Shown: piece by piece, positions 23,538 to 29,873 of the stretch
How positions within the stretch are numbered: the stretch's first letter is position 1
How the letters are laid out: each line of letters starts with the position of its first letter
NCBI RefSeq assembly: GCF_009908265.2
Contig: NZ_JAAATX020000008.1
Location: 124,001 to 188,000, forward strand
Length of the DNA stretch: 64,000 bases
Direction of reading: 5' to 3'
Source of the DNA: Paragemmobacter amnigenus
Lineage (GTDB): Bacteria; Pseudomonadota; Alphaproteobacteria; Rhodobacterales; Rhodobacteraceae
The notes under the pieces: generated by a model
Seen by the model: only the letters and a program-made list of their open reading frames with translations
Database searches by the model: none
What the model was told of the DNA's origin: nothing
Made by a program: the position numbers and the translations under genes

Positions 23538-25373
23538 TCAGGCCCCCGACCCGTCAGTCGAAGGCGCCTCTCCACCGGACGAGGGGTCACCGCCCGAAGA
23601 GGGGTCACCGCCCGAAGAGGGGTCACCGCCCGAAGAGGGGTCCCCGCCCGAAGAGGGGTCACCGCCCGCCGGTTCGCTCGATGCTGTCGCACTGCTCCGC
23701 GCGGCACCGTCATCGGCAGGACCGGTCGTCTGGGTCTGGTCCTCCTGCTTGTCCTCCAGCTTGCCTTCTTTAACCAGTTCCTCGGCCAGCACCTGCAGGT
23801 CTCCCTTGGCCTCCTCGTAGTCTGTGATGGCCTGCTCACCGTCCCCGATCGTCTGCTCGGCGTCCTCGACTACCTCATTGGCCCCCGTCGCCTCGCTTCC
23901 CTTCGTATCCGGGTCGTCCGCCTCGCCGACCGCATCGGTCAGACCTGCGACCTCATTGCCTTTCTCGTCGACCGTGCCATTCAGCAATTTCTCGACTTCC
24001 TCGTCCGTCTCGGCCGCGGCCTGCACGTCCTCGTCGTTGATCAGTTCGTTGGCCTGCTCGATGCGCGATTTCAGGCCATCGTCGTTGCGCAGCGGTTTCC
24101 CGTCTTCGCCAAGGATCGGCTCGCCCTCCTCGTCCGTCTTGATCGTGCCGTTGATCGCCTGATCAAGCTCTGCCAGCGCCTCCTCGAGTTTCGTCTTCGC
24201 CTGCTCCGCGTCCTCATTCATCCACGCCGCATCGACCAGCGCGATGGCATCCTCGACCTTCTGGCGATAGTATCCGATGTTCTGGATGCCCTCTTTCGTC
24301 AGGTCGAGGTCGAGGTTGGCATCAAGGGCAGCGATGTAGCCATCGGCACCGCCCAATTTCCCGACAGCCTCGTCATAGACCGAGATCAGCCCTTCAAGCC
24401 TCTCCTTGTCATAGATAGCCTGAAGTGTCGGGTTATCGCGGTCGAACGTGTCCAGCGCTTGACGTGCCGCAATTGCGGCATTGAGCTGGTTAATCTTCGT
24501 CTGGTTGGGCCGCTGCTTGCTCTGCTCTTGCTGAAGCTGTGTCGTAAGCGACTGGAGGCTCCGGCTGTCCCCGCTGCCACCTGGGGTGTTGGCTTCCAGC
24601 ACCCTCTCGATGTCTGCGCGCGTCAGACCGTTGTTGTCCGTGTCATAGGTTAACTTCAGAGTGGCAAACGTGTCCTTGATCGTCTGGATGTTCACCCCGT
24701 TCAACTGGTTTGTCAGGTTGGTCAGGGTGTTACCCCAAGCCGTCCTGTCGGTACCGAACCGCGTGGGGATCGCATTGATCGCATCCGTGACGGCAGTCCC
24801 CAACGCGTCATAGCCCAGCGTGCCCTTCAACTCGGTCACCGCCGTCTGCAAATTGCCCTCGGCCGTCTCCAGATTTCCGGCTGCCGTGGTGTAGGCGCTG
24901 ATCGCGTCCCGGATCTGCTGCGTGTAGACCGGCAGCGCCTCGATCTTCTTGACCTCGTCTTCAAGGGCGGCCTCGTCCCCCTCTTCCATCGCAGTCATCA
25001 GACGGGCCTTCACATCCGCCTGCAGCGTTAGCCGCCGGACCACGCCCAGCGCATCATTGACATCCGACTGCGCCTCCACGACCGCGCCCGCGGCATTCTG
25101 GACGTTGGTCAACGCCGCTTGCAGCGCATCGATCATGGCCTTGTTGTCGATACCGGGACCACCGCCCCCGCCCAATGTCAGCCCACCCCCGCCGCCGCCC
25201 GCCGTCACGCCGGGGATCGACCCCGTCGGCAGGTCCAGCACCTCCAGCAGGATTTCAGGACAGGCATCCGCCATCGCAGCCGCAGCGGCATCCAGATCGG
25301 CCCGCACGCGGAAGGCCACCGGATCGGCCGAGGCCTCGGCGCAGAGAACCGCAGCATCGGGAAGAGCCGCCAT
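23538..25373 (-). CDS. Unrecognised 611-residue acidic helical protein with (GGDPSS)5 tail
   Basis: I do not recognise this protein. What can be seen: an alanine-rich start without an obvious signal peptide; a glycine-rich stretch at 57-74; long helical, probably coiled-coil regions (about 78-185, 265-345, 365-545) rich in A, E, D, Q; an EF-hand-like loop DTDNNGLTRADI at 244-255 that lacks the usual acidic residue at position 12; two similar acidic turns (NGTIKTDEEGE, NGTVDEKGNE) near 408 and 465; and a Gly/Ser/Pro/Asp-rich tail with five GGDPSS units at about 570-600. It has only two cysteines and no membrane segment. Base composition is visibly less GC-rich than the neighbours. It stands alone. 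A surface, scaffold or calcium-binding role is possible but unsupported. Confidence 0.7.
   Translation of the reverse strand: MAALPDAAVLCAEASADPVAFRVRADLDAAAAAMADACPEILLEVLDLPTGSIPGVTAGGGGGGLTLGGGGGPGIDNKAMIDALQAALTNVQNAAGAVVEAQSDVNDALGVVRRLTLQADVKARLMTAMEEGDEAALEDEVKKIEALPVYTQQIRDAISAYTTAAGNLETAEGNLQTAVTELKGTLGYDALGTAVTDAINAIPTRFGTDRTAWGNTLTNLTNQLNGVNIQTIKDTFATLKLTYDTDNNGLTRADIERVLEANTPGGSGDSRSLQSLTTQLQQEQSKQRPNQTKINQLNAAIAARQALDTFDRDNPTLQAIYDKERLEGLISVYDEAVGKLGGADGYIAALDANLDLDLTKEGIQNIGYYRQKVEDAIALVDAAWMNEDAEQAKTKLEEALAELDQAINGTIKTDEEGEPILGEDGKPLRNDDGLKSRIEQANELINDEDVQAAAETDEEVEKLLNGTVDEKGNEVAGLTDAVGEADDPDTKGSEATGANEVVEDAEQTIGDGEQAITDYEEAKGDLQVLAEELVKEGKLEDKQEDQTQTTGPADDGAARSSATASSEPAGGDPSSGGDPSSGGDPSSGGDPSSGGDPSSGGEAPSTDGSGA
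23581..23670 (-). repeat. 18-bp in-frame tandem repeat, five units
   Basis: Five consecutive 18-bp units (plus strand GAGGGGTCACCGCCCGAA) encode GGDPSS repeats at the C-terminus of the 611-residue protein. Units 1-3 are identical, unit 4 differs by one base, and unit 5 differs at its end. Near-identity at third positions points to recent expansion by slippage. Confidence 0.9.
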
Positions 25374-25622
25374 CGCAACCTAGGGTGCCGCTGTCATAAG
25401 CAGCATGCCCAACACACATCTTGCACCACCAAAGGTACGCATATCCACACCACACTAAAAAACGCCCCAGCCAGACGTATATCATATGGTCAAAAGTATG
25501 GAAATACGCAATCTCGACAACCGAAAGACGAAATCAGGACACAATCGCAGGGCACTCGCCACGGAATCGCCACAATAGGCCATCCCCGGCGCGGGGGGCA
25601 GCACGCCCCCCGCCGCCTGCCC
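25374..25622. other. AT-richer intergenic region upstream of the 611-residue protein
   Basis: These 249 bp are clearly lower in GC than the surroundings and presumably hold the promoter of the 611-residue gene. A nine-codon minus-strand frame MLLMTAAP-stop (25406-25380) ends 6 bp before that gene's ATG. No repeat or RNA gene is apparent. Confidence 0.4.
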
Positions 25623-29513: not shown

Positions 29514-29542
29514 TTGCGCCCGCCCGACCCGCCCCCTATATT
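29514..29542 (+). promoter_or_regulatory. Sigma-70 promoter of ssrA
   Basis: TTGCGC (29514-29519) and TATATT (29537-29542) are 17 bp apart, giving a predicted transcript start at about 29549-29550, the base of the first tmRNA precursor hairpin. Confidence 0.7.
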
Positions 29543-29549
29543 CCCACCT

Positions 29550-29873
29550 GTCAGGGGCAACCCTGACTATGGCGATAAACGCACCTGTAATAGACGGCTC
29601 GGACCCGGGGGCGGTACCCGGCGGCTCCACCAAACATCCCGGTCATTGCGGGGGTAAGGGGCCGAAACAGGATCGACGAACGTTCAAAGAGGCCAGCTTT
29701 CGCTCGGTGAGGTACCACCGTTATCGGTCCAAGATCACAGTTGCCAATGACAACCGTGCTCCGGTGGCGCTGGCTGCGTAAGCAGCTCGCAATACCAAAT
29801 CTAAGTCCTTGCGCTTAGCCGCGTAAGGCGGGGTTCGCAGGTACCTGGCAACAGAAACCTGCACTTTCCCCCC
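29550..29873 (+). ncRNA. ssrA: Circularly permuted two-piece tmRNA
   Basis: Transfer-messenger RNA rescues stalled ribosomes and tags their products for proteolysis. As in other alphaproteobacteria the gene is permuted: the acceptor piece comes first and ends in GGCTCCACCA (CCA at 29630-29632), then a 25-nt excised spacer, then the coding piece from 29658 (GGGGCCG). CGGCTCC (29622-29628) pairs with GGGGCCG (29658-29664) to form the 7-bp acceptor stem. The tag frame at 29743-29781 reads ANDNRAPVALAA-stop, ending in the ClpXP-type LAA. A GTCAGGG-GCAA-CCCTGAC hairpin (29550-29567) begins the precursor. Outer ends are estimates. Confidence 0.93.

What the first reader, a model, noticed from the sequence alone, without database searches (positions are those of the whole stretch)
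23538..25373. Orphan 611-residue acidic helical protein with repeat tail, glycine hinge and degenerate EF-hand
It matches no family I recognise. It combines a Gly-rich stretch (57-74), several hundred residues of charged, probably coiled-coil helices, an EF-hand-like DxDxNG loop missing its position-12 ligand, two similar acidic turns near 408 and 465, and a (GGDPSS)5 tail. It is monocistronic, less GC-rich than everything around it, and no secretion signal is visible, which is odd for such a tail. This is the least explained gene in the window and the best candidate for a new scaffold, surface or Ca-binding protein.
Basis: seen in the sequence. Interest (0 to 1): 0.75.

Follow-up and report, generated by a model that had tools for sequence, protein, structure and literature searches.

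The report
Exported head-domain family with protease partner
The gene is not an orphan: it belongs to an undescribed family of exported bacterial proteins whose small head domain goes together with a LapG-like protease, and the copy in this window carries a stop codon inside its export signal.

Summary
The 611-codon ORF is real (minus strand, 23538-25373) and matches no Pfam, NCBIfam or PDB family. It is not an orphan: members occur in 11 of 19 genomes of its genus (own included), and the N-termini read look like signal peptides. In the window such a peptide is encoded just upstream (ATG 25442) but is cut by an in-frame TAG (25380-25382), which is why none was visible. Residues 6-55 are a two-Cys helical domain ending in a conserved P-T-[AG]-[ST]-[IV] motif (window DLPTGSI, 47-53). 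I found 58 distinct copies, almost only in the window's family (Rhodobacteraceae), heading exported proteins with repetitive or coiled-coil tails. The domain co-occurs with LapG-type BTLCP proteases: 20 of 21 domain-positive genomes have one, against 9 of 373 others. A domain gene lies 0.2-3.0 kb from one in 27 of 31 domain-positive genomes, 26 of them convergent. In a tree these BTLCPs fall, with one exception, on one side of a well-supported branch. A second such BTLCP in this genome follows haem-NO-sensor and GGDEF genes, recalling the c-di-GMP-controlled Lap system. Best reading: BTLCP substrates, probably cut at this motif; the window gene is a dispersed paralogue with disabled or altered export. 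Cleavage is inferred, not shown.

The parts
25496..25522 (-). Conserved upstream element GGTTGTCNAGANTNCGNATTTCNATAC (probable promoter/operator), 80-85 nt before the signal-peptide ATG in all three group-A genes
   Evidence: Exact in window, G003 and G013 loci. The 22-nt core is exact in only these 3 of 19 genus genomes; G007 and G010 match with 2 mismatches, and the reversed control pattern finds 3 matches at up to 2 mismatches.
25383..25442 (-). First 20 codons of a probable signal peptide, in frame with the 611-aa ORF
   Evidence: Adding it (X at the stop) raises the family HMM score from 76.4 to 83.1 bits; 9 of 3000 shuffles reach that. A cruder ungapped test was not significant.
25380..25382 (-). 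In-frame TAG interrupting the signal peptide, 6 nt before the ATG of the 611-aa ORF
   Evidence: Sequence; BLAST and profile matches of relatives run across it and report '1 TAG'.
23538..25373 (-). 611-aa ORF as given (23538-23540 is the stop codon)
25209..25358 (-). Two-Cys helical head domain (label 'TASI domain' is mine), residues 6-55, C11 and C38
   Evidence: Profile of 26 rows (the window is one of them), E 3e-14 in the own genome, E 1.5e-13; model helices 7-16, 18-22, 27-37, 39-45 at modest confidence.
25215..25235 (-). DLPTGSI, residues 47-53: conserved motif at the end of the head domain; proposed BTLCP processing site (inferred)
   Evidence: Profile position 47 is T in 55 of 58 distinct domains; T[AG][STA][IVLT] in 50 of 58.
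25152..25214 (-). Gly-rich linker, residues 54-74
   Evidence: Sequence; pLDDT under 50 at residues 48-74.
23769..25145 (-). Helical, probably coiled-coil region, residues 77-535
   Evidence: DSSP of the model, low confidence (mean pLDDT 44.8, 3 sequences); coiled coil itself not tested with a predictor.
23581..23668 (-). (GGDPSS)n tail, 18-bp tandem repeat
   Evidence: Tandem Repeats Finder 4.9 copies, 97%.

Best explanation
The protein is a paralogue in a Rhodobacteraceae family of exported proteins built as: signal peptide, ~55-residue two-Cys helical head ending in P-T-[AG]-[ST]-[IV], flexible linker, then a variable tail (coiled coil plus GGDxxS here; Gly-rich, collagen-like or Asp-rich repeats elsewhere). 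The family is functionally coupled to one clade of LapG-type BTLCP cysteine proteases. Shown: the architecture, co-occurrence, mostly convergent gene pairing, the protease clade, and retained triad columns. Inferred: the protease docks on the head domain and acts at or beside the motif, freeing the tail from its head, as LapG does to LapA, possibly under NO/c-di-GMP control, because one clade member follows haem-NO-sensor and GGDEF genes. In the window the signal peptide is split by TAG, so the protein is either made in the cytoplasm by re-initiation at ATG 25373, made rarely by read-through, or on its way to being a pseudogene.
For: Family members in 11 of 19 genus genomes, N-termini read as signal peptides by eye. 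Head domain: 21 of 394 family genomes, 12 of 19 genus genomes; class sample of 385: 3 matches, two in the window's family and one weak outside (at most 16-17 candidates were scored per genome in 36 and 37, so counts are lower bounds). 58 distinct domains: both Cys 58/58, T 55/58. BTLCP (PF06035, over cut-off) in 29 of 394 genomes: 20 of 21 domain-positive, 9 of 373 others, Fisher p 1e-25. Genus: 12 of 12 positive, 2 of 7 negative, one of the two a fragment. Domain within 3.0 kb of a BTLCP domain: 12 of 12 genus genomes (all convergent), 15 of 19 others (14 convergent). BTLCP tree of 55 rows: 42 of 43 rows from domain-positive genomes lie on one side of a branch supported 98/96; all 11 rows from domain-negative genomes of the family sample lie on the other. 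Triad columns C 48/49, H 47/48, D 46/46 of non-gap rows (assignment recalled from the family motif). HNOB and GGDEF genes directly before the second own BTLCP, with homologues beside the BTLCP in two other genomes. LapG substrates: helix, 'DP', then [T/A/P]AAG, and retention domains contacting the protease (passages and section 7 of PMC13090378).
Against: No cleavage was shown. The LapG di-alanine is rare here: [TAP]AA in 5 of 58, D-x-P-T in 16 of 58. Retention domains of the Desulfovibrio adhesins are beta-stranded whereas this head is modelled as helical. Substrates read as Sec-exported, and no exporter stood out next to the domain genes in the loci compared. The window gene and the group-A and group-B relatives are not next to a BTLCP. 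G066 has domain genes with no BTLCP in 16 kb; G285 has the domain but no BTLCP was found (domain close to a contig end); G012 has a BTLCP on the clade's side but no domain was found (87% complete); G066c45 lies on the other side. LapD was not searched for. Genomes of one family are related, so the Fisher p overstates the case.
Confidence: 0.55

Rival explanations
1. The BTLCP works as a transglutaminase-like cross-linker or amidase on the tails, building an extracellular or periplasmic matrix, and the head domain only recruits it.
For: BTLCP domains are thought to transamidate, hydrolyse or deamidate (HvyA paper, passages). Some tails carry Gln or Lys repeats, e.g. GDGGQQQQ in this genome's C5 copy. 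Tails are repetitive and varied.
Against: Among the tails printed, composition varies widely (Gly/Thr/Asp, Pro-Thr, collagen-like) with no shared Gln/Lys pattern seen by eye, while the head and motif are conserved. The BTLCPs with tested substrates in the passages read act as proteases.
Confidence: 0.15
2. The head domain is an inhibitor or chaperone of the BTLCP rather than its substrate, an antagonist encoded beside its enzyme.
For: A small Cys-paired domain, a convergent gene pair and strong co-occurrence fit an inhibitor-enzyme pair equally well.
Against: Some genomes carry several dispersed head-domain genes with long tails (up to 4 per genus genome), which an inhibitor would not need; after the Cys pair the most conserved stretch is a motif that leads into a low-confidence, linker-like segment.
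Confidence: 0.12
3. The window copy is simply a decaying pseudogene of an exported coiled-coil protein.
For: TAG in the probable signal peptide; longest branch of the family tree, 2.41 against 1.29 and 1.56 in group A, though long branches make this tree unsure; no family gene at the same aminotransferase-photolyase site in 12 of 18 genus loci, so it is dispensable.
Against: The frame stays open for 613 codons; upstream element, head domain, Cys pair and motif are intact; GC3 and codon bias are like those of intact relatives.
Confidence: 0.4
4. The TAG is a sequencing or assembly error and the gene is an ordinary exported member.
For: One stop codon in a draft of 37 contigs; the surrounding features are intact.
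Against: No reads or second strain could be examined; nothing positive points to an error.
Confidence: 0.2

Closest known systems
LapG/LapA (and DvhG/DvhA, LapG/CdrA) periplasmic protease-adhesin systems
   Same: A LapG-type BTLCP with Cys-His-Asp and a DCED stretch paired with an exported protein whose N-terminal module ends in a helix followed by a Thr/small-residue motif and a flexible stretch; c-di-GMP genes beside one clade member.
   Different: Substrates read as Sec-exported with small two-Cys helical heads, not type I secretion adhesins; the motif is PT[AG][ST][IV], not [T/A/P]AAG; LapD not tested; protease and substrate genes are convergent, not in one operon.
HvyA of Caulobacter (BTLCP that blocks capsulation)
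   Same: Alphaproteobacterial periplasmic BTLCP whose direct target was not identified in the passages read (PMC4241560).
   Different: HvyA lies in a capsule export locus. No head-domain gene beside it was looked for; the class sample found the domain only in the window's family apart from one weak match.
Collagen-like and repeat surface proteins (e.g. Scl/Lcl adhesins)
   Same: Low-complexity repeat tails; one relative (L085) has a GPTGPTGET tail that hits collagen-like adhesin models below their cut-offs.
   Different: Different head domain; the matched stretch is the repeat (residues 115-292 of 415). LPXTG anchoring was not seen by eye.

Membership tests
LapG-type substrate (LapA retention module) | Encoded beside a BTLCP/LapG protease | tested here: met
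   Met for the domain family (27 of 31 genomes); NOT met for the window gene itself or its group-A and group-B relatives.
LapG-type substrate (LapA retention module) | [T/A/P]AAG cleavage motif | tested here: not met
   [TAP]AA in 5 of 58 domains; a T[AG][STA][IVLT] motif in 50 of 58 instead.
LapG-type substrate (LapA retention module) | Helix then D-P before the scissile site | tested here: inconclusive
   Helix 39-45 then DLPTGSI in the window; D-x-P-T in 16 of 58.
LapG-type substrate (LapA retention module) | Type I secretion with C-terminal RTX signal | tested here: not met
   Relatives read as carrying Sec-type signal peptides (by eye, hydropathy); no RTX family hit among the proteins scanned.
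LapG-type substrate (LapA retention module) | Cleaved by its protease | not testable with these tools
   Needs protein work.
BTLCP / Peptidase_C93 (for the partner genes) | PF06035 over cut-off and Cys-His-Asp triad | tested here: met
   E 2e-42 to 9e-47 for the five proteins scanned; triad columns conserved.
EF-hand | 12-residue loop with position-12 ligand, conserved in relatives | tested here: not met
   Position 12 is Ile; loop absent in the six relatives checked; no EF-hand among Pfam hits up to E 1.

The most novel reading that the evidence does not exclude
Rhodobacteraceae carry a second, independent kind of Lap-like module: a dedicated BTLCP clade, in part tied to NO-sensing and c-di-GMP genes, processes a family of Sec-exported two-Cys 'TASI' head proteins and so releases or retains repetitive and coiled-coil tails at the cell envelope. 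The window gene is a family member whose export is set or switched by an amber codon within its signal peptide.
Probability: 0.35. Interest if true: 0.8.

Novelty: new variant of a known kind. Interest (0 to 1): 0.66.

Why it matters
BTLCPs are described as particularly widespread in alphaproteobacteria, and the direct target of the one studied in Caulobacter, HvyA, was not identified in the passages read. A domain that co-occurs strongly with one BTLCP clade and is encoded beside it gives a concrete candidate substrate family and a candidate cleavage motif, and makes NO/c-di-GMP control of envelope proteins in Rhodobacteraceae testable. It also turns an apparent orphan into a member of a domain family without a Pfam match.

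Tried and rejected
Foreign origin by codon bias: rejected, the bias is shared by the relatives tested. EF-hand or Ca-binding: rejected. Fold-based identification: the 210-residue model (mean pLDDT 63, pTM 0.43) gave no PDB match at E <= 0.001, only helical proteins at E 0.2 and worse; the full-length model is too poor to search. SMC/Rad50-type NCBIfam hits of the paralogue are far below their cut-offs and look like coiled-coil resemblance. My first signal-peptide test, ungapped, was not significant: 721 of 5000 shuffles and 138 of 1562 ATG-started window segments scored as high. The gapped HMM test gave 9 of 3000 and 8 of 1516, the latter counting the segment itself and one inside the domain. 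Conserved neighbours for group B: none shared between G000 and the three other loci compared. With the window protein itself as query, 6 of 61 relatives' genomes matched; the G003 relative was the more sensitive query.

Rows left out of counts: weak BTLCP matches below the cut-off (G238, G311; in the genus G004); for, 8 of 29 domain places outside the genus (further copies beside one already entered) and the BTLCPs of domain-negative genomes; for the protease tree, G163 (fragment) and several genus copies (both of G018, the second ones of G001, G012 and G002, one of G014). Three rows (G014c1, G001c11, G010c75) are labelled 'unlinked' only because short loci were used; one search shows them linked. 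The distances run between matched domains, not gene ends. The script picked a wrong frame for L081, L096, L104 and L105, and stopped with an error before its last seven loci; six of these were read, and L079 (the weak G715 hit) was not read further. Viral, phage and plasmid collections were not searched.

Literature: searches; none of the listings showed a paper on this domain. Seen: passages of PMC13090378 plus its section 7, and passages of PMC4241560 and PMC3032545; the others only as search listings.

Full report
WHAT IS THERE. The ORF is as described, on the minus strand. Its Gly-rich linker, acidic turns, DxDxNG loop and (GGDPSS)5 tail are present. Pfam, NCBIfam and PHROGs give only weak matches far from any cut-off, and PDB sequences give none better than E 0.6.

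NOT AN ORPHAN. A search of the own genome finds a paralogue. A search with the G003 relative finds family members in 11 of 19 genomes of the genus, own included. Two groups exist. Group A (window, G003, G013) lies between an aminotransferase class V gene and a DNA photolyase gene (families of the window genes). Group B (9 genomes, including this one) lies elsewhere. Of 18 aminotransferase loci, 12 have the photolyase in the 1.5-kb flank and no family gene, 3 have the gene, and 3 are uninformative. The gene is thus accessory at a fixed site. The proteins diverge fast: terminal branches of 1.3-2.4 changes per column in group A, against a median of 0.055 for the neighbouring aminotransferase; the program warns that such long branches are unsure.

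THE MISSING SIGNAL PEPTIDE. The genus relatives whose N-termini were read (11 genes in 11 genomes besides the window's) begin with what reads as a signal peptide. No signal predictor was available. In the window, the same frame reads M, 19 more residues, TAG, V-A-M-A..., with ATG at 25442 and TAG at 25380-25382. Three observations suggest a real, interrupted signal peptide. BLAST and profile matches run across it. It adds 6.7 bits to a family HMM built without the window, a gain reached by 9 of 3000 shuffles (a cruder ungapped test was not significant). A 27-nt upstream element shared by all three group-A genes starts 80, 85 and 82 nt before the signal-peptide ATG in window, G003 and G013. Its 22-nt core occurs exactly only in these 3 of 19 genomes. 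All nine group-B genes carry a different element, AAACAATNGTTAA, which occurs once in the own genome, before the paralogue. Whether the TAG is a mutation, a sequencing error or functional cannot be told here.

THE HEAD DOMAIN. A profile of the N-terminal domain (alignment A4) finds 58 distinct copies in the loci then held. Both Cys are invariant, position 47 is Thr in 55 of 58, and position 49 is Ser, Thr or Ala in 57 of 58. It occurs in 21 of 394 family genomes and 12 of 19 genus genomes. In a class sample of 385 it gives 3 matches: two in the window's family, and one short weak hit outside at E 8e-4. In some searches at most 16-17 candidates per genome were scored, so these are lower bounds. 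Elsewhere the domain heads exported proteins, in one or two copies, followed by low-complexity tails: GGGDT, collagen-like GPTGPTGET, TPTPEP, DPTNGTDPV or GDGGQQQQ repeats. Among the proteins printed, only groups A and B look coiled-coil, by eye. Of 26 domains scanned singly, Pfam gave four matches, each in one member, best E 0.026. The modest AlphaFold model shows helices 7-16, 18-22, 27-37 and 39-45, then a low-confidence stretch 48-74 that begins at the motif.

THE PROTEASE PARTNER. Around 16 other domain genes that I chose, comparison of neighbours showed the same ~210-residue protein in 12 loci. It is a BTLCP, PF06035, in the four scanned. BTLCPs over the cut-off occur in 29 of 394 family genomes: 20 of the 21 domain-positive genomes and 9 of the 373 others (Fisher p 1e-25). 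Genomes of one family are not independent, so the p value overstates the case. Within the genus the numbers are 12 of 12 and 2 of 7, one of the two being a fragment. A domain lies within 3.0 kb of a BTLCP domain in 12 of 12 genus genomes (all convergent) and 15 of 19 others (14 convergent). Of the four without, G181, G285 and G425 have the domain close to a contig end; G066 does not. In a tree of 55 BTLCPs, 42 of 43 rows from domain-positive genomes, and one from G012 (domain not found, 87% complete), lie on one side of a branch supported 98/96. The 11 rows from 8 domain-negative genomes of the family sample lie on the other side, as does G066c45; G066 also has a copy on the first side.

LINK TO c-di-GMP. 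This genome's second BTLCP, of the same clade, follows a haem-NO-binding gene and a GGDEF gene. Homologues of both lie beside the BTLCP in G006 and G003. In the Lap system, c-di-GMP acts through LapD to hold LapG back from cleaving an adhesin, and the optimal LapG site is a helix, a DP and [T/A/P]AAG (PMC13090378, passages and section 7).

MECHANISM. Most likely the BTLCP recognises the head domain and cuts at or next to PT[AG][ST][IV], separating head from tail in the periplasm or at the surface. Coupling is supported by genomics; docking, cutting and the purpose of the tails are inferred. The window protein has the head, the motif and a helical body, but is not next to a BTLCP and its export signal is broken by TAG. 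If translated from ATG 25373 (termination-reinitiation is possible, since the TAG is 6 nt upstream), it would stay in the cytoplasm.

COMPARISON. It works like a LapG substrate in outline, but fails two defining tests of LapA-type adhesins (the AAG motif and type I secretion), so I do not file it there. I file it as an unclassified exported domain family partnered with a BTLCP clade.

Noticed in passing
G000:C13:118371-120812 (L188:6372-8813): A haem-NO-binding gene, a GGDEF gene and a BTLCP gene run in a row; homologues of the first two lie beside BTLCPs in G006 (L189) and G003 (L190), suggesting NO/c-di-GMP control of a LapG-type protease.
   Followed up: partly
Upstream of all nine group-B genes, e.g. 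L025:1351: AAACAATNGTTAA element present before every group-B gene and only once in the own genome; no regulator assigned.
   Followed up: partly
window 25462-25478 (-): Terminator-like hairpin followed by a T-run between the conserved upstream element and the signal-peptide ATG; the scan found 3 such sites in the region against 1.4 by chance, so it may mean nothing.
   Followed up: no
L085:1345-2589: Head-domain protein with a long collagen-like GPTGPTGET tail in a Gram-negative bacterium.
   Followed up: no
G014:C37:16205-16669 (L161) and G002:C1:1825922-1826367 (L185, L187): BTLCP copies that look broken (one in-frame TAA; one split over two frames), a possible sign of turnover.
   Followed up: no
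window 29540-29872 (+): tmRNA gene (ARAGORN), tag ANDNRAPVALAA.
   Followed up: no
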